A stretch of DNA of 64,000 nt from Sphaerolaimus hirsutus. Its lineage: Eukaryota; Nematoda; Chromadorea; Monhysterida; Sphaerolaimidae. The translations under genes and the position numbers were made by a program. Under the pieces are notes generated by a model. The model was not told the origin of the DNA and made no database searches. It saw only the letters and a program-made list of their open reading frames with translations. The stretch is taken from contig OZ038453.1 in the NCBI GenBank assembly GCA_964036195.1, forward strand, positions 28,400,997-28,464,996, written 5' to 3'. Each line of letters begins with the position of its first letter. The stretch's first letter is position 1. Shown one piece after another: positions 1 to 56,018 of this stretch.

Positions 1-2
1 TG

Positions 3-4264: not shown

Positions 4265-4272
4265 TATAAAAT
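4265..4272 (+). promoter_or_regulatory. LTR TATA box (copy 1)
   Basis: TATAAAAT in the LTR, at the position of TATAAAAA in both copy 2 LTRs; likely core promoter marking the U3/R region. Confidence 0.5.
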
Positions 4273-4712
4273 ATTTTTCACCTAAAGGGGCGCAGGTTGA
4301 TAACACGTGTCACACCACCTGCTCTAAATTGTACCGTAACCTCTGAATAAAACCCAGTTTATGACACTCACCTTTGAGATAATTTGCAGTTTAATTACGT
4401 CATTGATAATCGCAGTTACTTCAAGTCTGGTTTAATTTACGTTTGTACCCTTTTTATCTAATTAATTATTTTTCCCGCATTTAATTAAATTGCTTGTGCC
4501 TTGTACGTTACGTTAACAGTTTTCCAGTGATCATTGAATTCGCCTTATATTTCGCTCATTATGGTTAATTGTTGTGTCTCAGATTTAGTATTCATTTCTA
4601 TTATGGTAGATTTTTGGTGATTATAAAACGCGCTGATTTTACATTTTTTCACCCACTAGAGGCTATACGACTCACTTGAGCTATTGTGAAATTGACTCTG
4701 ATTATATTGCTA

Positions 4713-4718
4713 AATAAA
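4713..4718 (+). terminator. LTR polyadenylation signal (copy 1)
   Basis: AATAAA in TAAATAAAGTTCCCGTGAA, conserved in all three LTRs of the window, about 450 nt downstream of the TATA box. Confidence 0.5.
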
Positions 4719-5106
4719 GTTCCCGTGAATCCAACTTGGTCCCCCTGAAGCATACTAATTGCTTGAATTTTAATTTGAATTTTATTAACTACGGCTTATT
4801 TTTGTCTGCTGCTTATTAACAAGTAATTGAAGTACTCCGCTGGCTGCAATTACGAAAGGGAATTGGTAAGTTGCCGTGTCCATCCTCGGGAACTGTCAGG
4901 ACCCCAAGGGGTACTGGCGCCGTTCCTGATTTGCGTGTAAAATCCCCGTACCATAAAAACAACCATTTATTTAATTACGCACGCAATTAAAAGCGCAAAG
5001 GGACCGGAAATTACAATTCTCCGCCGCGGCAAAATTTGACGAGTGACGTATTTTTGTGGTAAAAACGGAAACTAGTAAAATTAGTAAAAACGTAAAATAT
5101 CTGACA

Positions 5107-22070: not shown

Positions 22071-22130
22071 ATGATGTCCGTCTCCCGAGAAGGTAAGATG
22101 TCCGCCTGGAGATATGATGTCCGCCTGGAC

Positions 22131-38295: not shown

Positions 38296-39352
38296 ATACA
38301 AAGGCACTCTCCATCGATTTGGTAGGTCGATATTACCGTATTACCTCGAAATACCCCCATGGGGGTTTATTATTTCGCCAGCAAAATTTGAGGGGGGGGT
38401 TAATTCGAGGGGGGGGTTATTCGAGGGTTTTTTTATTATTTCGTCAGAAATTTTCGTAAGGATCATTGTAAATAGTAGGCATTTGCATACCCAAAACAGG
38501 TAATAAATGCGTCCAAATGTAGGTAGAAATATGGCTAACTAATCATGCGTAAAAACGTAACGACAATTTTGCGCAGACACTCCGACGACTCGAGAACGAC
38601 CATGTGCAACCGAATGACGACCCGCGGTGCACAGGGAAGTCACAGTGAACGTGCGGTTCGCTGTGCACTGCAAATCCGCCAACGAAGCCGCAGCCCCAGG
38701 ACGGTACACCCGAATGGACACTACTGCGGCCATGAATTTATTAATTGTTTCTTTTCCGTTAATTATTTAGTTGCTTCCCGTGTGATGCTAATTTTTCTTT
38801 TTATTTCATGTTTCATTAATTAAGCTAATTAGGTTACCCGCATTTTTGAGTTAATTAAGTGAATACTTCTGTTTTCTTTTGCATTTCCCAATATGTACTT
38901 TCGAACGTTATAATTATTAGGCTTTTATCAAGTTTACATTTTTGGTTAAAAGGGTGCAGTGTCTGGGAATGATTAGAAAGGCTTTTTATGTTTCTAGTTA
39001 AGCTAACAGGTGTTGACCCTGTTAAATGCTTAGACGCCCCGATAGATAACATTCAGAAAATTCCCCGACCAAGTGCATTTTTATTTAGGACTAGGTAATG
39101 GGTGGAAAAGTGGCAAACGGCAATTATTGTCGGCACGCAACTGCAAGGCACATGCAGAGCACAGTTTACAGTGAAGAGCACAGCAGTGCCAATTAATTAT
39201 TCCCATCACCCAGGGTGATTGGTGAACTCACAAGTGCTAGTGTCTTGTGGCGTGTGTTCAGGCCCGAAGTTTCCAACCCTTACCCGGCAATGCAATAACC
39301 TTGAACAACCCCCGCAAATGAGCGTTCTTTCTGTGGCCTTGGTCGGGCGTGC

Positions 39353-39360
39353 TATAAAAA
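39353..39360 (+). promoter_or_regulatory. LTR TATA box (5' LTR, copy 2)
   Basis: TATAAAAA ~835 nt into the LTR, conserved in all LTR copies; probable promoter for the genomic RNA. Confidence 0.5.
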
Positions 39361-39802
39361 TATTTTTCACCTAAAGGGGCGCAGGTTGATAACACGTGTC
39401 ACACCACCTGCTCTCGACTGTACCGTAACCTCTGAATAGAAACCCAGTTCCCGACACTCCCCTACGAGATAAATTGTGTTTTAATTACGTCAATGGTAAT
39501 TACAGTTACTTTACGCTCGGTTTAATTCATATTTGTACCCGTTTTATTTAATTAGATATTTTTCCCGCATTTAATTAATTTACTTGTGCCTGGTACGCTA
39601 TGTTTACGGTTTTCCAGTGATCATTGAATTTGCCTTATTGATTCGCTTATTATGGTTAATTGTTGTGTCTTTGATTTAGTATTCATTTCGTTTATGGTAG
39701 ATTTTGGTGATTATAAAACGCGCTGGTTTTACATTTTTGCACCCACTAGAGGCTATACGACTCACTTGAGCTATTGTGAAATTGACTCTGACTATATTAC
39801 TA

Positions 39803-39808
39803 AATAAA
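39803..39808 (+). terminator. LTR polyadenylation signal (5' LTR, copy 2)
   Basis: AATAAA; the equivalent in the 3' LTR (55643-55648) would direct 3' end formation of the element RNA. Confidence 0.45.
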
Positions 39809-40180
39809 GTTCCCGTGAAAACCAACTTGGTCCCCCTGAAGCATACTAACTGCTTGAATTTAATTTGAATTTTATTAATTTCGGCTTTTTAACAATTAAT
39901 CGAAGTAAACCGCCGGCAGCAGTTACGAAAGGGATTGGTAAGTTGCCGTGTCCGTCCTCAGGAACTGTCAGGACCCCAAGGGGTACTGGCGCCGTTCCTG
40001 ATTTGCGTGTAAAATCCCCGTACCATAAAACCAATTATTTATTTAATTACGCACGCAATTAGAAGCGCAAAGGGACCGGAAATTACAATTCTCTGCCGCG
40101 GCAAAATTCGACGAGTGGCGTATTTTTGTGGTAAAAACGGAAACTAGTAAAATTAGTAAAAACGTAAAATATCTGACAAC

Positions 40181-40198
40181 TGGTAGCGTAGCGAGTGG
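40181..40198 (+). promoter_or_regulatory. primer-binding site
   Basis: TGGTAGCGTAGCGAGTGG begins two bases after the LTR end. TGG complements a tRNA CCA tail, as expected of a minus-strand primer site. I cannot assign the tRNA with confidence. Confidence 0.6.
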
Positions 40199-40206
40199 TT
40201 TCCTAA

Positions 40207-41169
40207 GCAAGCCATAAAGTTTTCTGTCTGGGGCGCCTGATCAACGCCTCTACAAAAAACGGCTTCACGGATAACGAGTCACCCCAAAGGGAATTGAGAT
40301 CGAGGGGGCCAGCAAGCTTACAAGGGGACACCATAGAACAAGTTTGGCACGCTGCGTTGGAGAAGCAAAAACAAGCACGAAGGCGCGCGCGACAACAGAA
40401 GGCTGGGCAAGAAGTGGACGCACAACTTGCTGCAGCTGAGAGTCAAGCAGGAGACAGTGAGTCGAACGATTCAGTTAACCCTGAAACAGAAGCGCCAGAA
40501 GCGCTAGAGGAGAGTGAAAGTCAACGCTGGTCTGGACAGACAGCTGAGGACACCCCGGTAATCAGGTTATCAACGGTTGAAGGTGCAGGGCCTGCGCCAG
40601 ACAGTTTCAGTCAGTGGAAGACGCCAGCTGTACAGGCAGCGGCACGGCAGCTAACGTCCAGCGCAGAAGCCGAAGAAGCGCCTGGGACAAGCAGACAAGC
40701 TGCAGGAAAGGAAGCAGGTAAGACAGGTAAGTGGTCTAAGCTTCAGAGGACATTGGGTTGGAGCGCGGGCAGCTCATCCATATCGCCTGGAGTGCGATCG
40801 GGTTCTGAAGTCGGTTCAGACGGATACGTTGGTGACAGCGAGCCTCTAGGGCAGCCGTCGATTCAACGTGATTATCCTTTGATTGCAGCTGAGCTTGGAG
40901 CTACTGCAGATCAATTTCCCGTGATTGAAAATACCGTAGAGGAACTGTTGGAGACAGCGGCACAGAGTGGAGACACTTCCCCGGCGCTGCAGTTAAGCCC
41001 TCCGAAGAGCACGTCGACGCCGAGAGACGTGTCAGGCAACAGCAGTCGGAACTTATCGAGCGACCAGTCGAGATCGCAGAGCGCAACTGCAAAGGCTAGA
41101 CGCCAGTTAATTAAGACCGAATTCTCAAGTAAACCCCCCGTGATAATTATTAGCAGTTCCGCTAGCAGA
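40207..41169 (+). other. in-frame open extension upstream of the first ATG of ORF1
   Basis: 321 codons without stop or ATG, directly in frame with Gag. The composition is low-complexity and acidic (QAGDSESNDSVNPE, EALEESESQRW), with a downstream Ser-rich part. It contains a consensus splice donor, CAG|GTAAGT, at 40726/40727. It could be a CUG-started N-terminal extension, a leader exon, or both. Confidence 0.6.
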
Positions 41170-44100
41170 ATGACAAACAATGGCGCAAACCAGACGGCGG
41201 CTCCGGCGCTGGAAGACAGGTACGCAAAGGTCAATAATGCGAATTTAATTTACCAAGCTACCATAATGGACCTGGACCCGGTGCAAACAACGCCATCCTG
41301 TGCACAATGGACACCCAAAAAGGCATGTGAAGCCGCAAAGAAATGGGCAAACATGATGAGTCAGGCGAGACCGGTTGGCGCGTTCTCACAGAATGGTGAA
41401 CCAGGGGACTTGCGTATGGTGACACTAATTAAAATTGCTATGAATTTATGGGGAAGTGACCCAGTCGCCGAGGTACCTAGGGTGGAACATTTTCTGCAGG
41501 AATTCGAAGCGCACCACAGCGCACATGGCGATGATATAGTTGACCTGACGACTGCGTACCAGCAACATAATCAAGCCCTACAAAATCAGAACGCGACGCT
41601 GGGAGGAAATTCACCGGCCAGTGGCCAGCAGCCGATAGTGCTGACCAATGGTCAAACAGCGCCTTTACAGTCATCAACGGTACCAGCGGCGCCCCCGTCG
41701 GCAGCTGGAACAAACCAGGTGAGAACTGTTACGCAGCGACGCGCTCGATCCCGCTCGCCGGCGTCTTCAAGAAGCTCGTCAGCTACATCTGAAGTGGCGC
41801 GGCCCACGGACCCGGGACAAAATTGGCAATTAGAACAAAGCAATGCGGCGGTCATTACAGCCCTAGCACAACAATGTGGATATTTTCGCGGCAAACCAAA
41901 TGAGGGTTTCAGGGACTGGAGAAGGAGCTGGGATACGGTATGTGATGCGCTGCGCATAAAATTACAGGAGCGGAAGCCGCTGGTAAAATTGTTTTTAAAA
42001 GGCAGTGCTAGAGCCATTTTCAACACTCGATACAGAGAACTGCGTGACCTGAACTACAAGGACATGATGCAGGCACTGGAAAAGTTCTATGAAAACCCGA
42101 ATGACAAACATCATGCACAGAGAGAGATTTTTGAGACGCGACAGGGCGCAGATGAGTCGGTACTGGAATGGGCGGTACATTTGGAAAAATTGATAAAACG
42201 CGCCTATCCAGGCATGGGTCATGAAAAACGAGGTGACACATGCATGATAAAATTCCATGGAGGACTGAGAAATGAAATTCGGCGCAATGTACCTGTCACG
42301 GCTTCTATCACTTGGAAGGAGATGGTTGACAACGCACGCGCACAAGAAAGCTTTCTGGAAGCCGAACAGAGTCAGAATAAGGGAGAAAAATCCAAACAGG
42401 ATGTAGTTGCCAGTGCGACCGACAAGGTAATGGACAGGTTGATGGCGCTGAATATGCCCGCCATGGCTGGATTGCCGTCCCAGGCCGACAAGACGCTAGA
42501 GACAATGGAACAGAAAATGACTGAGAGTGTTGCTAAATTTGACTCGGTGCACCAAGAGATAGCGAAGAAATTAGCGCAACTGGGCGCGTTGGAAGGTAAA
42601 CTTTTGGGATTGAATAGAGACCCCCCTAAATTGCCCCCACGAAAATTTGACAAAGGATGTTGGGAATGTGGCTCTGAAGAGCACATCAGATATGAGTGCC
42701 CCAAACTAACTCCAGAACAAAGGGAACAGTATTTCAAAAGGAGCCGCGGCGGCGGAGCATCCAGAGGAAATGGACGTGGGCGCGGCGGAGGACAACGTGG
42801 TGGCTATCAGAGAAATGATCAAGCCCAAGCGATGCAGCCAGGTATGATGCCCATGCAATACGCATATCCGCAGTGGCAACCAGCTCAGCCGATGCCTGTG
42901 CAGCCGGCGCAGACGGTACAGAGGGCTGGTGATATGAACATGCAACCGCAGATGATGGCTTATCAAACGCCGCCAGCTAATTGGATGGCTATGGGGCCGG
43001 ATGGGCGCATGCAGCAATATAACATGCAACCGGTACAGGTAAGCAATCCCCACGTAGAGTCGCTGAACCCCACGCGAGTGACCAGTACGACTGGAATGAC
43101 CATGCATGTGCGCGAAGATGATCGCTGCATGATGATACGTCCCGTTAATAAATTAATCCCTGTGATGCAAGGCTTGGAATTAGAGGCAGATGAACCTGAC
43201 GAACTGGTTCCAGAGTCACCCGAAGAACAGCAGCGCACTACGGGAATGCATGTGCTCGCGCAAGAGCGGGAATTCTGGATCAAACCATGGGCCTACATGC
43301 GAACCGAGAAAGGTTACTTGTTTCGAACTACCTGGCTGGCCTTTCTACGCAGGATCAGAATGCATGATTTGAGAGAAACAGACTGTACGTTGTGGCCTAA
43401 TTGCCCTGCGGACGACCACTCGGACACGCTGACTGAGGTGCCCTTGGACGTGCTCATGAACATCAGTCTGGACCCGTTTCTGTACGCCACGCCGGCTGCT
43501 CTGCCGCCGCGTACTGGATCCAGCAACCAGGTAGACAGGTATATGGGTTTTCTGTCTACTGAGGAAGGGGTGCGCCCCGCGCCGCGCGCGTACTCAGAAC
43601 CCCCCTACATGCCCCAGGTCGCACAGTCACTGTTTTTTGTATTGGCAATTGGGTTAATTATAATGGGATTAGCTTTGTTGCCGGGTGCGGGCGCGACTAC
43701 CATGCCCTCGTTTCCACTGCTCTGCAGTGACTTGACGGATCACTACGATTTATACACGTACCCCCCCCTACCAAATTGCACGGCTATTGTGGACACTACG
43801 GCATCATTAGAACGGCCTCGAAAATTGACACTGACCATCTACAAACAAAATATGGTGGAATATCGTGCGGCAGCGCACAGGTGTGTGGCCTCTACCAGAA
43901 CGGCAAGGACGTATCAGAACTTCTGGGGCGACGTCACGCTGGAAAAGTTTGATTCTAACCCCCGATCTGTGGGCGCCGCCGAGTGCGAAGGCATGATTAA
44001 ATATCATAAATGCAATAATGGGCCTATGACCCCTGTGAGTGATTTGGACAACGCATGGGACACCCAATACCCCACCAATGTTAGCTACTCAGGACATGGA

Positions 44101-46890
44101 TTGTACTGTTGCAAATGGGTGAGTGAAACGACGCCACACTGTGGGCTGTTTCGAGGGGAAGTACGAATGAGATATGGAGCTAACACCATGCAAAGCACGC
44201 TGGGTGAGGTTAGCAAGTGCAATTATGAAATGGGTGCATGCACACTAGAAGACGGCAGCCAATTAACATGGAAACCGAACCCGAAGGCGGAATGCCCTTA
44301 TGAAAAATGGCGCGAAATGCATGGACGCATTAGACAGGATATCTGGCTAGCCGATGATCACACACTATCACTGTCTTTCAGAGCACATGAAGAGGTTGAA
44401 TCATGCGGCATCAAACTATGGAAATCGGATCAGGATATAGTAGTGGCCCCATTTGAAAAGGCAGTGATTCGAAGCGTCAGACAAAAACGAGCGCAAGGGC
44501 GACCCACGCTGGGAATAGTGAGCGCAGGCCAATTAGCAGCCAGCATGCAGGCGGTATACGAAACAGCAGAACAAACCATGCGTGCACAGGCCGTAGCCAC
44601 CTGCAAGAATGTGCAACACTTCCAAGAATTTGTGCGCCTGGCTATGAGTGAACACGCCACTACGACAGCCCGCTGGTACATGAATGATAATGAAATAATT
44701 GCCAAACCCGCGCCGGACGGATTTTTGGTTCACAAATGCTTCGCGGTAAAAACATACGAGATCATGAAAGAGGAAAAGTCTCCAGAATGTTATGAAACAG
44801 TACCTGTGCAAGTTAGTGTGCACGGGCAAAATGTGACGTTGCACATGAATAGGTTGACAAACATTTTGCACTTTCAAGCGATCCCGGGATCATGCACCAA
44901 TGCTCACAATCGTGTGGTAATGTTAAATGGACAGTGGTACAAATATCTACCGGAAGTAGGTGGCCTGGAACATTTACCTATGTATAACACACACAGTTTC
45001 CCACAGAAATGGCAACAGGAAAAGGTTAAGGATGTGCATCATCAGATTTTTGCCGCCACGACCATGTACAACTTGTCAGAACTATTGCCGACGACCACCC
45101 TAAATGACGTATGGCATGCATATTCAATCGTGCGGCAAATTACGCAGGGGGCGGAGCCAAAGGTGGAATCACACATGCAACGGCATCGAACCTTGGCAAA
45201 ATCGGTATTGGCGCTGGGATGGTGGGATTTTGACACCTGGCGCACCTGGCTACAAGTATGGATTTACCTAATATGTGCACTAGTCACCATGCAGTATCTG
45301 CTAGCCGCGCTCATGGCTGCAGCGCCGGAAATGGCCGTGACTATGGTGAACCGAGCAAAGGAAAAAATCAGAAAACGACCAAAGACAGAAGAAAAATCCA
45401 ATGTCATCGTCGAACTGGCTGAGGACCGCCCTAGCGAACAGGTGAAGGTAAGAACGGTAATTAACCCGTGCGTGGGAATGCCAAGTGGCATGCCCACACT
45501 CACGGGCGCGCGTCGTTTTCCCGCTATACAATACAGTATCAACAGAAAATGCGATCTGGAAGAAGAATCGGTATGCATGATCACTTTCTCGACGGAAGAA
45601 AGAGATAACATACATCAAGTAGCCAACCGACGTGAAGAAATCGTGCATGTGTACTACAGCCCATCCATTACCATAACCATCGATGGGAGAGAATATCGAA
45701 GATGTCTACTGGACACAGGCGCCATGCGTTCATTATGCAACAGAGACGTGCTGATGCGGCACAAGGAAAAGGCTACTAAGCATGATGAAGTTTCACCTAT
45801 TGGAGCCCTCAGGTGTGCAGCAGATTCGAAACTTTTGGTATTGGGACAGATGGAAATACCGGTAACCATGGGAAACCACACCTTCGGGATTGTGTTTCAG
45901 GCAGTGAACGGATTAGCAGGTGAAATCCTAATTGGCGCAGACGTCCTGCGGCACATGGTGGTAGACCTACCTGCAAGGGAACTACGAATCCCTACGGCTA
46001 ACGCGATAATTCCGTTTGACAACCCCGACCCGGAAGTGCAGCAGCGCAGAATGTACGCTATTGTGAACGAAAAAATAGAAATTCTGGCTAGACATGAAGC
46101 GCTAGTGACGGCGAAATTATCTGCCCCCATGGATGAAAAGTTATTTACGGTCATGGGATTGGATACGGTAGGCGAACGCTGTGGAGTTATGGCCGCTTCA
46201 GCGGCATATGAAACCAGTGCCCCCGTGTTTCAGGTGAGATGTGCAAATGTGCGAAACCAGCCCGTAGTGCTACAGGTAGGACAGCACATTGCAGTGGTCG
46301 AACCAGTGGACTGCGTGCTGAAGGTGAAACCTGGAGACCCCCCCGCTGAATGGGTGAAGCAGTGCTATGACAGAGATGTGTGTCAACAGGTTCAAGCGAC
46401 TGAACCCCCCCCCAAAGTAGCCGAAGACAAATTAGGACCCCCACTGCAAGTTGCATGTCCAGATGGACACGTGATGGAATTCACCGTGCCAGAAACATTG
46501 ACGGACGAACGCAGAGAGGAACTGAAAAAGGTGATTTTGCAGTACAAAGAAGCTTTTGCCCGACATAAGTACGACATCGGCTACAGCGAATTAGTGGACT
46601 ACCGGTTGCAATTAGTGGATAAAAAACCAATTGCATGCAGAATGTACCGGTTGAGTCTGGATGATCAGCAATACTTAGAAAATCATTTGAGATGCCTCAT
46701 CGAGCACGACATCGTGGAACCCAGTACGAGCCCGTATTGTGCCCCCACGTTGGTGGTATCCAAACCGGATGGATCGAAGCGGATGGTAATTGATTACAGA
46801 CGCCTGAACGCTGTTTTGCACGCTCCCCAATTCCCATTACCCCGCTTAGATGAAACAGTCGAATCTTTATGTAGCTGCAAGTATTTTTAG
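40207..46890 (+). CDS. gag-pol: ORF1: Gag - glycoprotein-like - aspartic protease - N-terminal RT polyprotein
   Basis: This single frame stays open from just after TAA 40204-40206 to TAG 46888-46890. Its first ATG is at 41170, so the upstream 321 codons (acidic, Ser/Gln-rich) need a non-AUG start or splicing. Order by nucleotide position: Gag capsid-like region 41820-42375 (FRGKPNEGFRDW ... FYENPNDKHH), CCHC knuckle 42658-42699 (CWECGSEEHIRYEC), RGG-rich tail 42742-42820, Met/Gln/Pro-rich linker, hydrophobic segment 43621-43690, cysteine-rich glycoprotein-like ectodomain with RQKR 44479-44490, second hydrophobic segment 45250-45320, basic tail, retropepsin (LLDTGA, 45703-45723; ILIGADVL, 45925-45948), linker, and the first RT blocks (KPDGSKRMVIDYRR, 46762-46803). 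RT stops after CSCKYF and continues in ORF2. An Env-like segment between Gag and protease is very unusual. Strong donor-like CAGGTAAG sites at 40727 and 43039 allow spliced forms. Confidence 0.88.
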   Translation, partial: ASHKVFCLGRLINASTKNGFTDNESPQRELRSRGPASLQGDTIEQVWHAALEKQKQARRRARQQKAGQEVDAQLAAAESQAGDSESNDSVNPETEAPEALEESESQRWSGQTAEDTPVIRLSTVEGAGPAPDSFSQWKTPAVQAAARQLTSSAEAEEAPGTSRQAAGKEAGKTGKWSKLQRTLGWSAGSSSISPGVRSGSEVGSDGYVGDSEPLGQPSIQRDYPLIAAELGATADQFPVIENTVEELLETAAQSGDTSPALQLSPPKSTSTPRDVSGNSSRNLSSDQSRSQSATAKARRQLIKTEFSSKPPVIIISSSASRMTNNGANQTAAPALEDRYAKVNNANLIYQATIMDLDPVQTTPSCAQWTPKKACEAAKKWANMMSQARPVGAFSQNGEPGDLRMVTLIKIAMNLWGSDPVAEVPRVEHFLQEFEAHHSAHGDDIVDLTTAYQQHNQALQNQNATLGGNSPASGQQPIVLTNGQTAPLQSSTVPAAPPSAAGTNQVRTVTQRRARSRSPASSRSSSATSEVARPTDPGQNWQLEQSNAAVITALAQQCGYFRGKPNEGFRDWRRSWDTVCDALRIKLQERKPLVKLFLKGSARAIFNTRYRELRDLNYKDMMQALEKFYENPNDKHHAQREIFETRQGADESVLEWAVHLEKLIKRAYPGMGHEKRGDTCMIKFHGGLRNEIRRNVPVTASITWKEMVDNARAQESFLEAEQSQNKGEKSKQDVVASATDKVMDRLMALNMPAMAGLPSQADKTLETMEQKMTESVAKFDSVHQEIAKKLAQLGALEGKLLGLNRDPPKLPPRKFDKGCWECGSEEHIRYECPKLTPEQREQYFKRSRGGGASRGNGRGRGGGQRGGYQRNDQAQAMQPGMMPMQYAYPQWQPAQPMPVQPAQTVQRAGDMNMQPQMMAYQTPPANWMAMGPDGRMQQYNMQPVQVSNPHVESLNPTRVTSTTGMTMHVREDDRCMMIRPVNKLIPVMQGLELEADEPDELVPESPEEQQRTTGMHVLAQEREFWIKPWAYMRTEKGYLFRTTWLAFLRRIRMHDLRETDCTLWPNCPADDHSDTLTEVPLDVLMNISLDPFLYATPAALPPRTGSSNQVDRYMGFLSTEEGVRPAPRAYSEPPYMPQVAQSLFFVLAIGLIIMGLALLPGAGATTMPSFPLLCSDLTDHYDLYTYPPLPNCTAIVDTTASLERPRKLTLTIYKQNMVEYRAAAHRCVASTRTARTYQNFWGDVTLEKFDSNPRSVGAAECEGMIKYHKCNNGPMTPVSDLDNAWDTQYPTNVSYSGHGLYCCKWVSETTPHCGLFRGEVRMRYGANTMQSTLGEVSKCNYEMGACTLEDGSQLTWKPNPKAECPYEKWREMHGRIRQDIWLADDHTLSLSFRAHEEVESCGIKLWKSDQDIVVAPFEKAVIRSVRQKRAQGRPTLGIVSAGQLAASMQAVYETAEQTMRAQAVATCKNVQHFQEFVRLAMSEHATTTARWYMNDNEIIAKPAPDGFLVHKCFAVKTYEIMKEEKSPECYETVPVQVSVHGQNVTLHMNRLTNILHFQAIPGSCTNAHNRVVMLNGQWYKYLPEVGGLEHLPMYNTHSFPQKWQQEKVKDVHHQIFAATTMYNLSELLPTTTLNDVWHAYSIVRQITQGAEPKVESHMQRHRTLAKSVLALGWWDFDTWRTWLQVWIYLICALVTMQYLLAALMAAAPEMAVTMVNRAKEKIRKRPKTEEKSNVIVELAEDRPSEQVKVRTVINPCVGMPSGMPTLTGARRFPAIQYSINRKCDLEEESVCMITFSTEERDNIHQVANRREEIVHVYYSPSITITIDGREYRRCLLDTGAMRSLCNRDVLMRHKEKATKHDEVSPIGALRCAADSKLLVLGQMEIPVTMGNHTFGIVFQAVNGLAGEILIGADVLRHMVVDLPARELRIPTANAIIPFDNPDPEVQQRRMYAIVNEKIEILARHEALVTAKLSAPMDEKLFTVMGLDTVGERCGVMAASAAYETSAPVFQVRCANVRNQPVVLQVGQHIAVVEPVDCVLKVKPGDPPAEWVKQCYDRDVCQQVQATEPPPKVAEDKLGPPLQVACPDGHVMEFTVPETLTDERREELKKVILQYKEAFARHKYDIGYSELVDYRLQLVDKKPIACRMYRLSLDDQQYLENHLRCLIEHDIVEPSTSPYCAPTLVVSKPDGSKRMVIDYRRLNAVLHAPQFPLPRLDETVESLCSCKYF
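43618..45400 (+). other. glycoprotein (Env)-like domain inside ORF1
   Basis: A hydrophobic stretch (SLFFVLAIGLIIMGLALLPG) that could act as signal or anchor precedes about 510 residues. These include eleven Cys before and four after a furin-type RQKR (44479-44490), four N-glycosylation sequons (NCT, NVS, NVT, NLS), and a second hydrophobic segment (WIYLICALVTMQYLLAALMA) followed by a basic KEKIRKRPK tail. That is the plan of a class-I-like surface/transmembrane glycoprotein. The pattern CYETVPV, later Cys, then NGQWYKYLP in the second half recalls the chuvirus/bornavirus-type glycoprotein group. I hold that family assignment only weakly. It lies between Gag and protease in one frame, so topology or splicing must separate it from Pol. 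Confidence 0.65.
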
Positions 46891-49588
46891 CAGTGCTGAC
46901 ATAAATCAAGCTTTCTATAACATTGCTTTGCATCCAGATGATCGACACATCACGTCATTCAGAAATGTTTTTGGACAATTTCAACTGAAACGTTTACCAA
47001 TGGGATTAAAATGCTCACCCAGTTTAGCGCAGCGCTGTTTTGAATTAGCTATGGCCGGCTTAATACATCGAAATGTGTTATTATACATCGACGATTTACT
47101 GATTTATAGTGCAACCTGGGAAACACATTTATATGACATAGGGCAGGTATTGGAAAGATTAATTAGGAATAATTTCAAAATTAGCCCAAAAAAGTGTTTC
47201 TTCGCACGCGTCACAGCTGTACGTTTTCTAGGATTTATGATTGGCTGTGACGGCGTGTGCGTACCAGATGATAAATGGCACATAATTCAGGACTGGCCGG
47301 TACCCACTACCGTAAAAGAGGTCAAAGGATTTCTGGGAGCTATCGGTTTTTTCAGACGCATGATTCACAGATGCGCAGAGCTAGCTGTACCCTTGTCAAA
47401 TCTCACGCGTACGGGGCCAAGAGAAAATTACAATAGCGACACCCCGGTGGATTTGACATCGAAACCCAAGGCACTGGAAGCTTTCCATAAGCTCAAGGAA
47501 GCATTGTTAGGAAGCCCATGTCTGCAATTTCCCGATCCTAAACGTATGTTTATAATTATCACGGACGCCTCTAAAATTGCTGTTGCAGGCGTGCTAGCAC
47601 AACGAGCGGAGGACGAGAAAATACTACATGCATGTGCCTTTTACAGCCAGAAGTTAGGCGCAACCCAAAGCAAATGGCCAGCAATTTCACTAGAAGCATG
47701 TGCAATCTACGAAAGTATACGTAACTGGCATTGTTATCTGGCGGGACGGCCCTTTGAAGTCTGGACCGACGCCAAGAGTATTTCATGGGTAAAAAATCCT
47801 AATTTAGAGACTACCCCGCACGCCATGCTACACAAGTTCGCTTTAGCAATTACGCCGTACCAAATCACGTTCAAGCACTTGAGGGGAAAAAGCAATGAAC
47901 TAGCTGATGCATTATCTAGAAGACAAGACGCACCAGTGGTATTCGACGAGAAAAAGGACCTGGATGAGGCTTTTGAGCAGTTTGCACAAGTTACATGCCG
48001 TGAAATCGCTATCCCGCACGATAAGCAGGTTACGGTAGCTGCGGCGCGCAGGGCAGCGTACCAGCCAATCAACGAACGAAGCGGCGTAAACGAGGAGGCG
48101 GAGTTACTGCGACCAATCAGCGACCGGACGCGCGGGCGAAAAGAGGCGGAGTCACCCGGGCTGCGAGAGCGGCAGCGGAATGCGGAAGCGCCTGGAACTG
48201 GAACAATGGCTGGTGGTTCAGGAGCCGGAAATGGAGTTGTTTCGGGTTTAACGGGTGCGACTAAGCGCAGTACAATCATGGCACTACCTCCCATGACCCC
48301 GGTTGATAAGTTGAAACGGCTACAAGCAGAAGAACCGTACATAGCCACAACTATAGAAGTGTGTCGCGCAGATAATTTTTACAGCGCCGCGCCGTATTTT
48401 ATTGATCAATACGGTTTATTACGCCGACAAGCGGGAACGTCCCAGATACCAGGTGTACAATTATACGACCCAGTGTGTATTCCATCGGAATTAGTTCCAT
48501 TCGTGTTAGAATTAGCTCACAATCACCCCACAGCGGGCCATTTAGGAATAATAAAAACATTTGAAAGATTACAGGAATTCGCGTGGTTTCCAGGAATGCA
48601 ACCAGAAAGTGCGCGCTGGGTTGCCACCTGCCCTTCGTGCAACGCCAAGAAAGGTCTCAGAGCGGCAATGCGAACTCAAATGGTGTGCCGCCAGGTAGCC
48701 AAAAGGCCAGGTGATGTGATAGCAGTAGACGCAATAGGACCTTTACTAACCACGAAACGCAGAAACCGACATGTGTTAGTATTTGTTGATCAGTGCACAC
48801 GTTTTGGAATTGCTGTGCCCGTTCCCGACATAAAACAAGACACAGTATCATTTGCATTTCTGTTGCACATTTTGCCTATATTTAGTGTGCCGGCCATTAT
48901 ACTCAGTGATAACGCCCCTAGCTTTACCGAGGGCACTTTTGCCAAGCTTTTACAATATTTGAACGCGACCCAACATACATCATTTGCGTACACCCCCAAG
49001 AGCAACGGAATGGTGGAACGTAGGAATGGTGTTCTGATGGAAATAGTATCTCACTACGTAAATCGTACACATGACGATTGGGACATACATTTAGGCGCCG
49101 CTGTACATGCGTACAATACGTCAAAACACCCTTCCTTGCAAACCACCCCCTATGCGTTGCTATTTGGCAAGCCTGCTGCGTCTATGTGGGAGCGTATGAT
49201 CGAGCCTCCCCCCGACACTGAGGCATTGCCCTCATTGCCGCATAAGCGCGCTCTTATAACCACCGCACGCGAAGCAGCGCACACCGCCTTAGCAAAGGCG
49301 CAGCAAAAGGAGCAATTTTACGCCAATCGCCGTGCGCGCCGATTGAATGTGCAACGCGGGCAAGCAGTACGCGTATACACGCCGTGTATTACTCAGTTGA
49401 CAGGCCCCAGTAAGAAATTCGCGCCTCGCTTTATCGGCCCGTATGAGTGCATTGATTATGCCCACCCATTAGTGACTTTATTCAACAATATTAATAAGAA
49501 AATTTATGTAGTTCATGCAGACCGTTGCAAGGCAACCAGTGAATATTTAATTCCCCCTTCTTACAGTGAATTATACGGCGACGACTAA
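46850..49588 (+). CDS. pol: ORF2: rest of reverse transcriptase, RNase H, integrase
   Basis: This frame is +1 relative to ORF1 and takes over RT homology at the codon after the ORF1 stop (from 46889, SSADINQAF). The ATG at 46850 overlaps RT coding of ORF1 and is probably not a real start. RT catalytic YIDD at residues 79-82 (47084-47095). RNase H: ITDAS (~238), SLEACAIYE (~282), WTDAK (~304). A ~100-residue Arg/Glu/Gly-rich spacer follows. Integrase: zinc site H559-x4-H564-x29-C594-x2-C597; catalytic D627, D687 and E723, with exactly 35 residues between the last two; C-terminal GPY module (FIGPYECI, ~862-869). This is the PR-RT-RH-IN order of Ty3/Gypsy. All catalytic residues are present. Expression most simply requires a +1 shift from ORF1, or the break is a mutation or sequence error. 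Confidence 0.9.
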   Translation: MKQSNLYVAASIFSSADINQAFYNIALHPDDRHITSFRNVFGQFQLKRLPMGLKCSPSLAQRCFELAMAGLIHRNVLLYIDDLLIYSATWETHLYDIGQVLERLIRNNFKISPKKCFFARVTAVRFLGFMIGCDGVCVPDDKWHIIQDWPVPTTVKEVKGFLGAIGFFRRMIHRCAELAVPLSNLTRTGPRENYNSDTPVDLTSKPKALEAFHKLKEALLGSPCLQFPDPKRMFIIITDASKIAVAGVLAQRAEDEKILHACAFYSQKLGATQSKWPAISLEACAIYESIRNWHCYLAGRPFEVWTDAKSISWVKNPNLETTPHAMLHKFALAITPYQITFKHLRGKSNELADALSRRQDAPVVFDEKKDLDEAFEQFAQVTCREIAIPHDKQVTVAAARRAAYQPINERSGVNEEAELLRPISDRTRGRKEAESPGLRERQRNAEAPGTGTMAGGSGAGNGVVSGLTGATKRSTIMALPPMTPVDKLKRLQAEEPYIATTIEVCRADNFYSAAPYFIDQYGLLRRQAGTSQIPGVQLYDPVCIPSELVPFVLELAHNHPTAGHLGIIKTFERLQEFAWFPGMQPESARWVATCPSCNAKKGLRAAMRTQMVCRQVAKRPGDVIAVDAIGPLLTTKRRNRHVLVFVDQCTRFGIAVPVPDIKQDTVSFAFLLHILPIFSVPAIILSDNAPSFTEGTFAKLLQYLNATQHTSFAYTPKSNGMVERRNGVLMEIVSHYVNRTHDDWDIHLGAAVHAYNTSKHPSLQTTPYALLFGKPAASMWERMIEPPPDTEALPSLPHKRALITTAREAAHTALAKAQQKEQFYANRRARRLNVQRGQAVRVYTPCITQLTGPSKKFAPRFIGPYECIDYAHPLVTLFNNINKKIYVVHADRCKATSEYLIPPSYSELYGDD

Positions 49589-49814
49589 AATTGATTAATT
49601 AGCTGATTAATTAGCCGTTACGACCATCGCCGTCGCGTCAAACAACACGGAACCAGGTATAACAGGTATGAAGCGTGTGTGAAAGTGTGCGTGTGTTTTT
49701 AGGAAGCTCGTGCACCCCTTTTGCCCACGGGCAACTGGACCGCACGAGTTCTTATTACTTTCCCCGTTCATAAAACTTCGTAATTAATTATTTTATCACA
49801 TTGTTATAATTATA
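49589..49814 (+). other. ORF2-ORF3 spacer with candidate splice acceptor
   Basis: 226-nt gap. TGTGCGTGTGTTTTTAG|GAAG (AG at 49701-49702) is a plausible 3' splice site about 110 nt before the helicase ATG. With the donor at 40726/40727 it could make a subgenomic mRNA, as retroviruses do for env. Confidence 0.4.
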
Positions 49815-52800
49815 ATGGCTTCGGCCTCTTGCAAACGCCCATTTGAAGGTGCAGACGCCCCGCCCATTAAATCCAAGGAGACAAATACACATGGTGCCTG
49901 CGGCGGCGGAACCATCCCCCCGCGACAACTCTACCGCGCGCAGCAGATGCAAAATGGACCGGAAATCTACCCCAGCAGAGGGAAATTCGAAGGTTGGGTA
50001 GATAGGGTGTATATTGACTCGGGCGCCGACGGGCATGTTGAGTATCAGTGCCATGTGAGAATTTCTGAGCAGACGATGGCGATACTCAGCGAAAACGAGC
50101 AGTGGGTGAATGCGGATGAAGCCTATCCGTATTTTTATTATTCGAATAAGCGGGCCAAGGCGGCTAGGGACAAACGGACCACCCAGCTGGTGGATTTGTG
50201 CGCGAGAATTCAGAAACAACACCCCTCGATGTTTCTGCCCCTGGTGCGCCACGGGATGCGTTTCTCGGCGACCGCAATCGCGCAAAAAATAGAAAATCCC
50301 AGGTACTGGGAGTTTACCGGCGTCGCGATATGGGGTAATCAGACAAAGTGCCCCTTAAACGTTGCCGCCCCCGTGGTCGTGAGTACGCAGGGCACGCGGC
50401 GCGTCACTCAAGCGGCACGTACATTGACGCGCGGCGACACTTCTGGCTACCAGCCCTACACGAGCGACTGGAAAACGGCGCGGCTGCGAGCGGCCTTCAC
50501 GCCGTCGAATTACAAAAATCTGGAACCGCTGGGCGCGGCGGAGCGGGGCGATGCCGGGCCGGAAAAGTTGGTCATTTTGCACAGAGAATACGTGAGTGAC
50601 AGCAGAGTGGAAAATTTGAGTGCTGGGCAGTTGGGGCTGGCCCACGTCGAATATCACGACCTGAACGATTTGGACGTGTTCGGCGACGAATTCTACGGCC
50701 ATGCGTACGGGCTGCAGGTCGCCACGGCCGAGGACATCAGCACAACGGGCATCCAGCCAGACACAGAGAACCGAGACAACATGGACGCGTTCCTCAGGTA
50801 TAAATTGGGTATTTTAGCAGCGGCCCACTGCTATAACGAGTCATTTTTGCGGTTTCGGGCGAAACGCGCAACGGATGTGTGCGCACATGTGTCCTGGGAG
50901 CACACGCCGCAGGGCACTGCATGCGATATTATGGTGCGCCGCCCGGACCCAGAAGAATTACAAGCTGACACTTTCGAAGGACCAGAAGAGCAGCGCGTGC
51001 GTTTGCTGGAGCGGGTGAACACGCAGACACAGCTGTTGAACCAGGCGACGCCCATGTCAGTGCTGAGCTTGGTGCTGGCCAGACCAGACGAAGACAAACC
51101 AGCGGCGGGCAGCCCCAATCTATCAGTCAGAATTACCAGTGTGGAATCAGAGCCAACCACTACAATGCTGCGTGCAAAATTGGACATGGCGGCGTCGCAG
51201 TCAGCGCTGCCCCGTACTCTGGAGAGTGGAAGATACATGGTGCGCGGCTCAAACGACTCGCCCAATTATGACCGAACAATGCGGTCACTGCAAGCCGCCC
51301 TGAACAAAGCACCGGTCGGCTGGGTGCCAAAAGTGGTTCAGGGGTCAAAAGTACTCACCCTGGAGGCGCAAATCCAATTAGCGGTGATATTGAATTTGCG
51401 TCTGCTGGATGACGAAACCGACTGGGCGCTAATTAGCCGCGAGGCTAACGAGTCGTACGAATCATTGTTCAGAGGAAAAAACGAACAAATGATTCAGGCC
51501 AAATTAGGTGAGTTTTTGCCGCAGCAGGGGCAGGTAGAAGTTTTAGGAGCTGTGATCACAGCCGTGCGAATGCGCAAACCCCTTTTGATTATGTGTGACT
51601 CGCCTTTCGGGTCCGGGAAGACGACCACACAAAATCAACTGGCGTATGTGTGTTCACGCGGCTATAATTATTATAACTCGAGACCCAGGGTGCGCGCGGG
51701 CTCCGACTTGCCATCGGACAAGCAGCCGAACGCCAATCACCATTCGACGCTCATCACGTGCACGGTCAACTCGGCGGCTGACGAAGGCGCGCGCAGGGCC
51801 CTGACCAATCTGAATAAATTAGGGCAGCGGGATATTTTTGGGGCTTTGGAAGTTTTGTTGCGGGAGCGCGCGAAATGGACCGCTATGGCTGATGCGCCAT
51901 TTTCTGAAATGCAAAAACTGGAGGGTTTTGAAGAATTTTTGAAATTAAGAGCGGCATTTCCGGTGCGCGTTTTGAGCCCCATGTGGGAAACTGACCCCAC
52001 TTATAATACCACCCCCGCGACCCAATTGCCAACCCTGCACACCCTAGCACAGCGAACCGGCCACAACATCGTCCGCCTCAGCCCCGAATGGACGGCAGCG
52101 CTGGAAAAGTACGACGGCGCCAAGAAGGACTACGAGCTGGTGGACGAAATTATCAACAACTGCACGGACGACGCCGTCATACGCACACAGCTGACCGAAC
52201 AAGTGCCATTTCTCACCGCCGAAGACGGAGACGAGCAGCCATTCGATGACTTCGAGGCAGGCGTGGCGGGCGCCCGGGCTGGTGAGGCTAGTTTAACTGA
52301 CCAGGGATTTTGGGGTAAGGTGCTGCGTAGGGCGCTGTCTAAATATGTCAGGGCTACGGTCAGGCTGCACCGGGTGTTCTTGGAAGTGGTGCAGCCCGGT
52401 CAAATCCATGTCACTTTAGACTCCGCCCACGACGCCCGTATAAAAAGTGTGACTGCGTGTGCGGTAATTATTGACGAAGCGTCTTTGGCGTCTGACGCTG
52501 CCGTAATTAGCGTGGTTCAGGCGGCTCAGCTCCCAGTGAACGGCATGCTACTTCTATTTGGAGACAGTAAACAACTGACGCGTATGATTCGCGTGCAAGA
52601 CTGGGTGGAGCCTGTCCTGAAACCCGACCCCACCCTCATCGATAGGCTCACACAATATCAACTATGTCCCGTGGTTCACTTGGAAACAGTGTTCCGCGGG
52701 CATCGCCAGCTCATTCAGGCTAACTCTGTGGCGGCGTACAACGGACTGCTACGCGCCTACAACGACACTGCAGCGCACGGCGCCACCATGTTGCCCGCAC

Positions 52801-53786
52801 CTGGCGACTTCGAGGATGGCGTCATGCTGTCATCGACGCTGGTGCACCAGGGCTGCGAATCAAAAGAGGGCATGTCCATTATCAACAAGAAGGAGCTGCG
52901 CATCATCCTGCACCTGTACGACTACCTCGTGGCCACAGTGAAAGAAGATCCCACCCTGCCCTGGGCAGATCTTACCGATCCCGCTAGTTTGCTAATTGTC
53001 TGTTTTTATGCGGCGCAGGCGCGCGCCCTAATCAGTCGACTAGTAGCCCATACAGAACACGACGCGGCTTACTGGGCCACCCGCGTGATCACTGCCGACA
53101 AAGCACAGGCCCGTGAAGCGGAAGTGGTCATCGTTTCCTGCGTGCGCGGCAGCCCGCCTACCGACTCCGCCCAGCTGGATGCCGACCCCAAGAAGGCGTA
53201 TGGTAGAGTTGGATTTGTAGCGGAGTTGCCCCGGGGAAACGTAGCCACCTCCCGCGCCAAATGTGTGCGCATCGTGGTGGCCAACGCCGAGACCATGTTG
53301 TGGTCAACCTTTTTCCACCGGTTTCTGACGGTCGAGCACAAAGCCGACCGGATTTACTCTTACGAGTCAGGCCAAATTTGGGGAAACGTGTTGGGATTTT
53401 GGCCTCCGGAATGGCGCCCGCGGGCCGACTTGAAAGAACTAGTCGGACCGGACAGATACCCGGCCCTCGAAGAAGAACTGCAGGCGGAATGTTTGTCTGA
53501 CATTGAAACCGCAACCGCGGGCTCTGACTCCTCCGCAGACGCGCGGGAGGAGGGTGTGCCGGTGTTGGAGGAAGTGGTGCCCGTTGTCGAACCAGTTTAC
53601 CGCCCTAATGAAGAATATTCCCCCATTAGCAACGACATGGCGGCCATGGCACTGCAGAACGTAGCCGAGCCCCCCTCGCCGCCGCCCGAGCACCACGACG
53701 CGGTCGAGGCCATCCCACTGCCACCGGAGGAGGCTCCAGCGCAACAGGTAGAACACCACATGGAAAATGGTAATTGTGAAAATTGA
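49815..53786 (+). CDS. ORF3: superfamily-1 Upf1-like helicase carried by the retroelement
   Basis: 1323 aa from ATG 49815 (MASASCKRPF). Residues 1-~560 match no domain I recognise. The helicase core begins with Walker A GSGKTTT (~599-605), then motif Ia (TCTVNSAADEGARR, ~650), Walker B IIDEAS (D887, E888), motif III GDSKQL (916-921), an FRGHRQL block (960-966), motif V ITADKAQAREAE (1092-1103, Ala where Upf1-like enzymes usually have Gly) and motif VI NVATSRAK (N1142, R1147). This order and spacing are those of SF1B Upf1/nidovirus-type helicases. The C-terminal ~150 residues are acidic and Pro-rich. It occupies the env position, after integrase. The same ORF in copy 1 differs mainly at synonymous sites. 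Function is unknown; assistance in reverse transcription, RNA handling or evasion of decay are guesses. Confidence 0.9.
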   Translation: MASASCKRPFEGADAPPIKSKETNTHGACGGGTIPPRQLYRAQQMQNGPEIYPSRGKFEGWVDRVYIDSGADGHVEYQCHVRISEQTMAILSENEQWVNADEAYPYFYYSNKRAKAARDKRTTQLVDLCARIQKQHPSMFLPLVRHGMRFSATAIAQKIENPRYWEFTGVAIWGNQTKCPLNVAAPVVVSTQGTRRVTQAARTLTRGDTSGYQPYTSDWKTARLRAAFTPSNYKNLEPLGAAERGDAGPEKLVILHREYVSDSRVENLSAGQLGLAHVEYHDLNDLDVFGDEFYGHAYGLQVATAEDISTTGIQPDTENRDNMDAFLRYKLGILAAAHCYNESFLRFRAKRATDVCAHVSWEHTPQGTACDIMVRRPDPEELQADTFEGPEEQRVRLLERVNTQTQLLNQATPMSVLSLVLARPDEDKPAAGSPNLSVRITSVESEPTTTMLRAKLDMAASQSALPRTLESGRYMVRGSNDSPNYDRTMRSLQAALNKAPVGWVPKVVQGSKVLTLEAQIQLAVILNLRLLDDETDWALISREANESYESLFRGKNEQMIQAKLGEFLPQQGQVEVLGAVITAVRMRKPLLIMCDSPFGSGKTTTQNQLAYVCSRGYNYYNSRPRVRAGSDLPSDKQPNANHHSTLITCTVNSAADEGARRALTNLNKLGQRDIFGALEVLLRERAKWTAMADAPFSEMQKLEGFEEFLKLRAAFPVRVLSPMWETDPTYNTTPATQLPTLHTLAQRTGHNIVRLSPEWTAALEKYDGAKKDYELVDEIINNCTDDAVIRTQLTEQVPFLTAEDGDEQPFDDFEAGVAGARAGEASLTDQGFWGKVLRRALSKYVRATVRLHRVFLEVVQPGQIHVTLDSAHDARIKSVTACAVIIDEASLASDAAVISVVQAAQLPVNGMLLLFGDSKQLTRMIRVQDWVEPVLKPDPTLIDRLTQYQLCPVVHLETVFRGHRQLIQANSVAAYNGLLRAYNDTAAHGATMLPAPGDFEDGVMLSSTLVHQGCESKEGMSIINKKELRIILHLYDYLVATVKEDPTLPWADLTDPASLLIVCFYAAQARALISRLVAHTEHDAAYWATRVITADKAQAREAEVVIVSCVRGSPPTDSAQLDADPKKAYGRVGFVAELPRGNVATSRAKCVRIVVANAETMLWSTFFHRFLTVEHKADRIYSYESGQIWGNVLGFWPPEWRPRADLKELVGPDRYPALEEELQAECLSDIETATAGSDSSADAREEGVPVLEEVVPVVEPVYRPNEEYSPISNDMAAMALQNVAEPPSPPPEHHDAVEAIPLPPEEAPAQQVEHHMENGNCEN

Positions 53787-54357: not shown

Positions 54358-56018
54358 TGTAGGTAGAAATATGGCTAACTAATCATGCGTAAAAACGTAA
54401 CGACAATTTTGCGCAGACACTCCGACGACTCGAGAACGACCATGTGCGACCGAATGACGACCCGCGGTGCACAGGGAAGTCACAGTGAACGTGCGGTTCG
54501 CTGTGCACTGCAAATCCGCCAACGAAGCCGCAGCCCCAGGACGGTACGCCCGAATGGACACTACTGCGGCCATGAATTTATTAATTGTTTCTTTTCCGTT
54601 AATTATTTAGTTGCTTCCCGTGTGATGCTAATTTTTCTTTTTATTTCATGTTTCATTAATTAAGCTAATTAGGTTACCCGCATTTTTGAGTTAATTAAGT
54701 GAATACTTCTGTTTTCTTTTGCATTTCCCAATATGTACTTTCGAACGTTATAATTATTAGGCTTTTATCAAGTTTACATTTTTGGTTAAAAGGGTGCAGT
54801 GTCTGGGAATGATTAGAAAGGCTTTTTATGTTTCTAGTTAAGCTAACAGGTGTTGACCCTGTTAAATGCTTAGACGCCCCGATAGATAACATTCAGAAAA
54901 TTCCCCGACCAAGTGCATTTTTATTTAGGACTAGGTAATGGGTGGAAAAGTGGCAAACGGCAATTATTGTCGGCACACAACTGCAAGGCACATGCAGAGC
55001 ACAGTTTACAGTGAAGAGCACAGCAGTGCCAATTAATTATTCCCATCACCCAGGGTGATTGGTGAACTCACAAGTGCTAGTGTCTTGTGGCGTGTGTTCA
55101 GGCCCGAAGTTTCCAACCCTTACCCGGCAATGCAATAACCTTGAACAACCCCCGCAAATGAGCGTTCTTTCTGTGGCCTTGGTCGGGCGTGCTATAAAAA
55201 TATTTTTCACCTAAAGGGGCGCAGGTTGATAACACGTGTCACACCACCTGCTCTCGACTGTACCGTAACCTCTGAATAGAAACCCAGTTCCCGACACTCC
55301 CCTACGAGATAAATTGTGTTTTAATTACGTCAATGGTAATTACAGTTACTTTACGCTCGGTTTAATTCATATTTGTACCCGTTTTATTTAATTAGATATT
55401 TTTCCCGCATTTAATTAATTTACTTGTGCCTGGTACGCTATGTTTACGGTTTTCCAGTGATCATTGAATTTGCCTTATTGATTCGCTTATTATGGTTAAT
55501 TGTTGTGTCTTTGATTTAGTATTCATTTCGTTTATGGTAGATTTTGGTGATTATAAAACGCGCTGGTTTTACATTTTTGCACCCACTAGAGGCTATACGA
55601 CTCACTTGAGCTATTGTGAAATTGACTCTGACTATATTACTAAATAAAGTTCCCGTGAAAACCAACTTGGTCCCCCTGAAGCATACTAACTGCTTGAATT
55701 TAATTTGAATTTTATTAATTTCGGCTTTTTAACAATTAATCGAAGTAAACCGCCGGCAGCAGTTACGAAAGGGATTGGTAAGTTGCCGTGTCCGTCCTCA
55801 GGAACTGTCAGGACCCCAAGGGGTACTGGCGCCGTTCCTGATTTGCGTGTAAAATCCCCGTACCATAAAACCAATTATTTATTTAATTACGCACGCAATT
55901 AGAAGCGCAAAGGGACCGGAAATTACAATTCTCTGCCGCGGCAAAATTCGACGAGTGGCGTATTTTTGTGGTAAAAACGGAAACTAGTAAAATTAGTAAA
56001 AACGTAAAATATCTGACA
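54358..56018 (+). repeat. 3' LTR of retroelement copy 2
   Basis: 1661 bp, three differences from the 5' LTR. TATAAAAA at 55193-55200 and AATAAA at 55643-55648. Confidence 0.95.

What the first reader, a model, noticed from the sequence alone, without database searches (positions are those of the whole stretch)
43618..45400. Glycoprotein-like domain encoded between Gag and protease in one frame
ORF1 reads Gag, then a segment with two hydrophobic anchors, about 15 cysteines, four N-glycosylation sequons and a furin-type RQKR, and only then the retropepsin and RT. In known retroviruses and env-bearing Metaviridae, env lies after pol. An intact open frame through the whole insert argues against a chance fusion. 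If translated as one chain, protease and Pol would follow a membrane anchor, implying a new way of packaging or releasing Pol, or splicing that removes the domain. If real, this is a new genome plan for a retroelement or retrovirus.
Basis: partly seen in the sequence, partly recalled or inferred. Interest (0 to 1): 0.92.

Follow-up and report, generated by a model that had tools for sequence, protein, structure and literature searches.

The report
Fusion glycoprotein inside a retroelement polyprotein
A young virus-like element in an animal genome carries a viral membrane-fusion protein in frame between its capsid and its protease, in many copies and under strong selection; this unusual order has been described before in planarian flatworms.

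Summary
Window 38518-56018 is a 17.5-kb Ty3/Gypsy-type provirus (LTRs 99.8% identical, 4-bp target duplication). ORF1 reads Gag, glycoprotein, protease, RT start without a stop. The insert matches Pfam's Monjiviricetes_fusion over its cut-off; a profile of it with three related inserts matches herpesvirus gB structures: a class III-type fusion protein. It is no chance fusion: 74 scored copies carry it; of 86 copies chosen by protease/RT, 58 keep a frame of 2200 aa or more (3 of them with a stop in the matched part); pN/pS in the insert is 0.056 against 0.045 in protease/RT; 17 cysteines, 4 sequons and the furin site are kept in 30 of 30 copies. A second family in the genome has Env, protease and RT in one giant frame. 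The plan is not new: Arkhipova and Yushenova (2019) described env in frame between gag and pol in planarian Burro. Here the host's mitochondrial code is not the flatworm one, and a helicase ORF and a conserved +1 frame change inside RT are added. How Gag and Pol are made past a membrane anchor is open: polyprotein with internal signal peptide (favoured), splicing, or both.

The parts
38518..40178 (+). 5' LTR, 1661 bp, TG...CA; preceded by CAAA target duplication
   Evidence: 99.82% identical to 3' LTR (3 mismatches)
40207..43617 (+). Gag part of ORF1 with zinc knuckle and linker; first in-frame ATG only at 41170
   Evidence: PF03732 E 1.9e-5 over cut-off, zf-CCHC below cut-off; 40550-40950 pN/pS 0.111 in 17 rows; C-part pN/pS 0.059 in 25 of 30 copies
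43609..45399 (+). Envelope-like class III-type fusion glycoprotein: in-frame ATG 43609, hydrophobic signal-like segment 43606-43704, RQKR at aa 288 (counted from 43618), anchor 45247-45327, basic tail
   Evidence: PF24664 E 9.5e-8; topology and motifs; pN/pS 0.056 in 50 copies
45400..46890 (+). Retropepsin (DTGA) and N-terminal part of RT, end of ORF1
   Evidence: pN/pS 0.047 (29 copies) and 0.045 (40 copies)
46884..46890 (+). TTTTTAG end of ORF1; RT goes on in the +1 frame (ORF2)
   Evidence: 40 of 40 collinear copies
46850..49588 (+). ORF2: rest of RT, RNase H, integrase (H2C2, rve)
49815..53786 (+). ORF3, 1323 aa: SF1 (UPF1/IGHMBP2-like) helicase domain, in the place where env usually lies
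   Evidence: PF13087 E 8e-25, TIGR00376 E 5.9e-14 but far below its cut-off; pN/pS 0.068 against copy 2; 34 of 35 scored copies without stop, 612 candidates
54358..56018 (+). 3' LTR, followed by CAAA
40727..40727 (+). Candidate splice donor CAG|GTAAGT (first intron base)
   Evidence: best donor score of 39300-46900; 17 of 17 rows
43039..43039 (+). Candidate splice donor CAG|GTAAGY
   Evidence: 39 of 40 copies
45448..45448 (+). Candidate splice donor AAG|GTAAGA just after the Env tail, next to a synonymous-diversity trough (45457-45516)
   Evidence: 40 of 40 copies, trough pS 0.0095 against mean 0.131
49567..49567 (+). Candidate splice acceptor TTCTTACAG|TGA, best-scoring of 39300-54400
   Evidence: AG in 21 of 21 rows, TGA in 20 of 21, one row only partly alignable
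1..5106 (+). 3' part (ORF3 and LTR) of a second copy of the element
   Evidence: 92.3% identical to 50935-56018; by distance its Env is the match at G000:C4:28393656-28395437, upstream of the window (inference)

Best explanation
The segment is the functional envelope protein of a young, env-bearing Ty3/Gypsy-type endogenous virus: a chuvirus/herpes-gB-like (class III-type) fusion glycoprotein captured between Gag and protease. Shown: domain order, homology, intact frame in many copies, strong purifying selection. Inferred route, favoured: unspliced RNA is translated as one chain Gag-Env-protease-RT. The hydrophobic segment at the start of Env acts as an internal signal peptide, as in alphavirus or flavivirus structural polyproteins; signal peptidase frees Gag on the cytosolic side; the Env ectodomain enters the ER and is cut at RQKR by furin; the second anchor stops transfer, so the protease and RT emerge back in the cytosol attached to the Env tail. 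That would place Pol at the budding membrane and let the protease release itself. Splicing (conserved donors 40727, 43039, 45448; acceptor 49567) probably makes further messages, perhaps Env without Pol, and the ORF3 message.
For: Homology: PF24664 over cut-off; 8 of 17 cysteines invariant in an alignment with three other inserts of the same genome at 19-21% identity; a profile of these four finds 51 PDB sequences at E 10 or less, 48 of them herpesvirus gB (some under synonyms, recalled), 20 of those at E 0.001 or less, best 8.9e-8. Selection: env pN/pS 0.050 in 30 and 0.056 in 50 copies, against 0.047 and 0.045 for protease+RT start. Motifs kept 30 of 30, ATG 43609 40 of 40. Frame: 58 of 86 copies chosen by protease/RT have frames of 2200 aa or more, 3 of them with a stop inside the matched part. 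Topology: two hydrophobic segments between Gag and protease, so the protease would end on the Gag side. A second Gypsy-like family (L072, 6806-aa frame) also has Env, anchor, protease, RT and RNase H in one frame. No strong acceptor (best 4.3 bits) lies in 45300-45700 to join Gag to protease without Env.
Against: Splice donors of 10 bits or more are in excess in ORF1 (6 against 1.0 in synonymous shuffles, 0 of 500 reach 6) and the donor behind Env lies beside a synonymous trough, which points to splicing for at least part of Env. P0002 alone finds no solved structure at E below 1 and no database protein at E 0.01 (4640 candidates). One chain implies Env:Gag 1:1, unlike retroviruses. Copies L001-L050 are the top 50 of 74 ranked by similarity to this Env, which biases pN down; protease/RT, not selected on, is as low. 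L072: no R-x-K/R-R site in its Env, no Gag match in the fetched stretch, and a third hydrophobic segment before its protease whose partner stays below 1.5, so the side of its protease is not settled.
Confidence: 0.6

Rival explanations
1. Env is a normal fusion glycoprotein but is made only from a spliced message, as in retroviruses: an upstream donor (40727) joins an acceptor before Env (43353 or 43618), and donor 45448 joins acceptor 49567, where the reading phase meets TGA at once, so Env carries no Pol. Gag-protease comes from another splice form or from low-level read-through.
For: Donor excess 6 against 1.0, 0 of 500 synonymous shuffles; donor 40727 in 17 of 17 rows while its neighbour 40718, itself one of the six, is absent in 14 of 17; donor 45448 in 40 of 40 with low synonymous diversity behind it; acceptor 49567 is the best of 15 kb, its score reached by 6 of 500 shuffles of ORF2, kept in 21 of 21 rows, TGA in 20 of 21.
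Against: It does not explain why Env and protease share one open frame here, in L072 and in Burro. By position arithmetic donor 40727 is not in phase with acceptors 43353 or 43618, so Env would need an internal ATG. The acceptors before Env are mediocre (9.0 and 7.6 bits). A donor of 10 bits or more falls within 45400-45500 in 32 of 500 shuffles. The lowest trough (pS 0.0062) lies between the 1st and 5th percentile of shuffled minima, and troughs may have other causes (RNA packaging, structure, gene conversion).
Confidence: 0.33
2. The segment is a membrane anchor for Gag-Pol assembly inside the cell and no longer an entry protein.
For: The copies multiply inside one genome; entry cannot be seen in sequence.
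Against: Cysteines, sequons and the furin site are kept (30 of 30), and the first five of six 99-aa stretches are more constrained (pN/pS 0.031-0.063) than the last, which holds the anchor (0.106); an anchor alone would not need that.
Confidence: 0.07
3. A chance fusion, assembly artefact or dead insert.
Against: 74 scored copies on many contigs, pN/pS about 0.05, 58 of 86 frames of 2200 aa or more.
Confidence: 0.01

Closest known systems
Burro giant Gypsy elements of planarians (Arkhipova and Yushenova 2019, PMC6431247)
   Same: Gypsy-type; env with similarity to mononegavirus fusion proteins, in frame between Gag and protease; [quoted passage not shown]
   Different: Burro: ORF1 4873-5140 aa, over 30 kb, BCL2, BIR, ankyrin and dUTPase parts, dugesiid flatworms. 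Here: ORF1 2227 aa, 17.5 kb, none of those domains in the Pfam scan, +1 frame change within RT, separate helicase ORF3, host mitochondrial code not that of flatworms
Anakin, BEL/Pao element with chuvirus glycoprotein (Dezordi 2020, PMC7642597; passages)
   Same: chuvirus-type glycoprotein captured by an LTR element
   Different: BEL/Pao, not Gypsy; the passages seen do not state the glycoprotein's place outright, a figure legend lists it last, after integrase. The 2023 follow-up (PMC10084718, passages) reports no clear capture by Gypsy elements in its survey
Dingle, Gypsy element of the annelid Dimorphilus (PMC7854359; passages)
   Same: Ty3/Gypsy with herpes gB-like Env
   Different: Env lies downstream of integrase
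Alphavirus and flavivirus structural polyproteins (recalled)
   Same: capsid, then internal signal peptide, then glycoprotein, in one chain (proposed here by analogy)
   Different: no reverse transcription; no sequence relation tested
Cer1 of C. elegans (PMC10309623; passages)
   Same: no stop between gag and pol, extra ORF after pol, spliced message used
   Different: its 3' ORF encodes CERV, neither an Env nor a helicase by that paper

Membership tests
Ty3/Gypsy (Metaviridae) | LTRs with TG..CA and short target duplication | tested here: met
   1661-bp LTRs, CAAA duplication
Ty3/Gypsy (Metaviridae) | Gag, then protease-RT-RNase H-integrase in that order | tested here: met
   (protease models below Pfam cut-off, DTGA seen)
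Ty3/Gypsy (Metaviridae) | RT groups with Ty3/Gypsy on a tree | tested here: inconclusive
   18 rows, 11 of 15 inner branches open, no outgroup; the 16 relatives carry Gypsy-type domains
Monjiviricetes (chuvirus-like) fusion glycoprotein | match to PF24664 over curated cut-off | tested here: met
   30.9 bits against 27
Class III fusion protein (gB-like) | sequence relation to solved gB | tested here: met
   by a four-sequence profile; the window protein alone has no such hit
Class III fusion protein (gB-like) | fold with central helix and two fusion loops | not testable with these tools
   structure prediction switched off
Burro | Env in frame between Gag and protease | tested here: met
Burro | giant ORF1 near 5000 aa with BCL2, BIR, ankyrin, dUTPase parts | tested here: not met
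   ORF1 2227 aa; none of these in the Pfam scan
Burro | flatworm host | tested here: not met
   mitochondrial COX1 of the assembly has AAA at conserved lysine sites; that flatworm mitochondria read AAA as Asn is recalled
Infectious retrovirus | enveloped infectious particles | not testable with these tools
   no experiment

The most novel reading that the evidence does not exclude
A retroelement lineage that uses an alphavirus-like membrane polyprotein: Gag, internal signal peptide, class III Env, stop-transfer anchor, then protease and RT tethered to the Env tail, so that Pol is packaged through Env rather than through a plain Gag-Pol fusion. The plan has arisen or spread in two Gypsy-like families of one non-flatworm genome as well as in planarian Burro.
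Probability: 0.4. Interest if true: 0.82.

Novelty: new variant of a known kind. Interest (0 to 1): 0.62.

Why it matters
Textbook retroelements put env last and express it by splicing. The published exception (Burro) left open whether env in frame before pol was an oddity of giant elements. Here the same order is under strong purifying selection, in dozens of young copies with open frames, in another kind of animal, and Env before protease in one frame recurs in a second family of the same genome. That turns how Pol gets past a membrane anchor into a testable question, with a recently active family to examine by RNA and protein methods.

Tried and rejected
Chance ORF or pseudogene: rejected by copies and pN/pS. 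Env-skipping splice giving Gag-protease: candidate donors exist, but the acceptors in 45300-45700 score 4.3 bits or less; not excluded. Common origin of the window Env and the L072 Env: BLASTP between them is weak (E 0.009) while the window Env matches a BEL/Pao Env better (E 5e-11); the RT tree does not resolve it, so one or two captures cannot be told apart. Nematode SL1 in the window: none. Relatives in IMG/VR and phages: none. Helicase ORF in the protein database: none at E 0.001 among the 8000 candidates scored (capped). One pN/pS figure for the Gag end (0.217, 40 copies) is probably inflated by four rows that I take to be out of register there (L015, L029, L030, L045, with 5 to 13 in-frame stops in Gag each); the cleaner set gave 0.059 with five of 30 rows dropped for indels. 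The first run was wrong because minus-strand loci had not been turned. Ten of 50 copies were left out of the collinear set of 40, and 14 of the 40 hold an in-frame stop somewhere in the stretch. The 14 control genomes gave no match, but the eight named are prokaryotes, so this says little. The count of env against protease by DNA patterns did not complete (below), and a search with the RT family PF00078 was dropped.

Full report
What is there. The window lies in a 348-Mb assembly, an animal's by its mitochondrial genes. At 38518-56018 sits an LTR retroelement of 17,501 bp: LTRs of 1661 bp with three differences, TG...CA ends and a CAAA duplication on both sides, hence a young insertion. ORF1 (40207-46890) holds Gag, the finding's segment, retropepsin and the first part of RT; ORF2 (46850-49588) the rest of RT, RNase H and integrase; ORF3 (49815-53786) a 1323-aa protein with an SF1 helicase domain. 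The helicase occupies the place where env usually lies.

The segment. 594 aa: hydrophobic N-terminal segment with an ATG just before it, 17 cysteines, four sequons, RQKR, hydrophobic anchor and basic tail. Pfam's Monjiviricetes_fusion matches it over the cut-off and collinearly (protein 189-447, profile 188-448). Other inserts of the same genome match more strongly (68 scored of 1557 candidates, E 3.5e-12 or less, open frames up to 6806 aa; the window's own place is not among the 68). An alignment of four inserts keeps eight cysteines, and its profile finds herpesvirus gB among solved structures (48 of 51 hits at E 10 or less, 20 of the 48 at E 0.001 or less, best 8.9e-8). So a class III-type fusion protein is well supported, though the window protein alone does not reach gB and no model could be made.

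Is it kept? The segment search scored 74 full-length copies of 1238 candidates; 44 of the 74 have open frames of 2200 aa or more, 3 of these 44 with a stop in the segment, and 6 of the 74 have such a stop. Chosen instead by protease/RT, 86 copies were scored of 1345 candidates; 58 have frames of 2200 aa or more (3 with a stop in the matched part), 10 have 1157-2118 aa and 18 are below 1090 aa, too short to judge. pN/pS: env 0.050 (30 copies), Gag end 0.059 (25), protease+RT start 0.047 (29); env 0.056 (50 copies), protease+RT start 0.045 (40), Gag end 0.217 (40, probably inflated by misaligned rows). The 17 cysteines, 4 sequons and RQKR are kept in 30 of 30. Within-genome variation of bdelloid env-like ORFs was described as mostly neutral (PMC5408684, passages), so this is a marked contrast. 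A dead or ornamental insert is ruled out.

Not a single freak. L072, from a frame of 6806 aa, shows fusion glycoprotein, anchor, protease, RT and RNase H in one frame (RT and RNase H 29% identical to the window's); no Gag match lies in the 8 kb fetched. L071 and L073, from frames of 2900 and 2911 aa, look like BEL/Pao elements (DUF5641, integrase) with the glycoprotein fused behind integrase. One search found the mitochondrial contig; its COX1 has AAA at conserved lysine sites, AGA at serine and TGA at tryptophan sites, which by recalled code tables excludes flatworms, echinoderms and tunicates. The host is otherwise unnamed.

How it may work. Protease and RT can only be made by reading through Env or by skipping it by splicing. 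Between Env and protease no good acceptor was found, and Env and protease share a frame in three families (this one, L072, Burro; Gag too here and in Burro), which favours read-through of Env as a membrane polyprotein: two hydrophobic segments bring the chain back to the cytosol before the protease. L072 has a further signal-like segment between its Env anchor and protease; its partner is not clear, so the side of that protease is unsettled. On the other side, ORF1 has six strong donors where synonymous shuffles give 1.0 (0 of 500 reach six), though one of the six, 40718, is absent in 14 of 17 rows. The donor just behind Env is invariant (40 of 40) and borders one of five synonymous troughs below 0.03 (28 windows below 0.02 against 1.6 in shuffled codon order, the single lowest value being between the 1st and 5th percentile), and the best acceptor of the element precedes ORF3 and meets TGA in that phase. 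Both routes may operate. I put the polyprotein route at about one half, exclusive splicing at one third.

What is known. Env in frame between gag and pol was announced as a first case for Burro (PMC6431247 section 7, read in full), with env hits to mononegavirus fusion proteins. Chuvirus glycoprotein capture is known for BEL/Pao (Anakin; PMC7642597, passages), and a 2023 survey saw no clear Gypsy capture (PMC10084718, passages). Searches for further cases (open-access papers only, top of each listing seen) showed no other Gag-Env-protease element, which does not prove there is none.

Verdict. Real, functional by selection, not categorically new: a new variant of the Burro-type plan in a different animal group, with a helicase ORF and an RT split by a conserved +1 frame change as added oddities.

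Noticed in passing
46850-46890: RT is split between ORF1 and ORF2 in the +1 frame at TTTTTAG, unchanged in 40 of 40 collinear copies; this looks like programmed +1 frameshifting inside RT, an unusual place.
   Followed up: partly
49815-53786: Large SF1 (UPF1/IGHMBP2-like) helicase ORF in the usual env position; 34 of 35 scored copies without stop, pN/pS 0.068 against copy 2; no relative at E 0.001 among 8000 scored database candidates.
   Followed up: partly
40207-41170: ORF1 looks coding upstream of its first in-frame ATG at 41170 (pN/pS 0.111 at 40550-40950, 17 rows): a non-AUG start or a spliced 5' exon is implied.
   Followed up: partly
42727-42786, 43090-43149, 45457-45516, 46636-46695, 46795-46854: Troughs of synonymous diversity in ORF1, hinting at RNA signals; the last two lie shortly before the +1 site.
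   Followed up: partly
L072 (G000:C1:17079000-17087000): Giant 6806-aa frame with Env before protease and a further signal-like segment in between.
   Followed up: partly
L071, L073: BEL/Pao-like elements with the glycoprotein fused in frame behind integrase; the window Env is closer to the L073 Env than to the L072 Env.
   Followed up: partly
13261-22138 and 24043-32940: Direct duplication of 8.9 kb, 99.5% identical, beginning right after a 200-N gap (13061-13260): recent duplication or assembly artefact.
   Followed up: no
8482-9127: Self-complementary stretch of about 650 bp, 87% identical.
   Followed up: no
window-wide: Many short tandem arrays of a few related units (G-run/TTCGA, GGCGCC, TGTAAA/GTCA motifs).
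   Followed up: no
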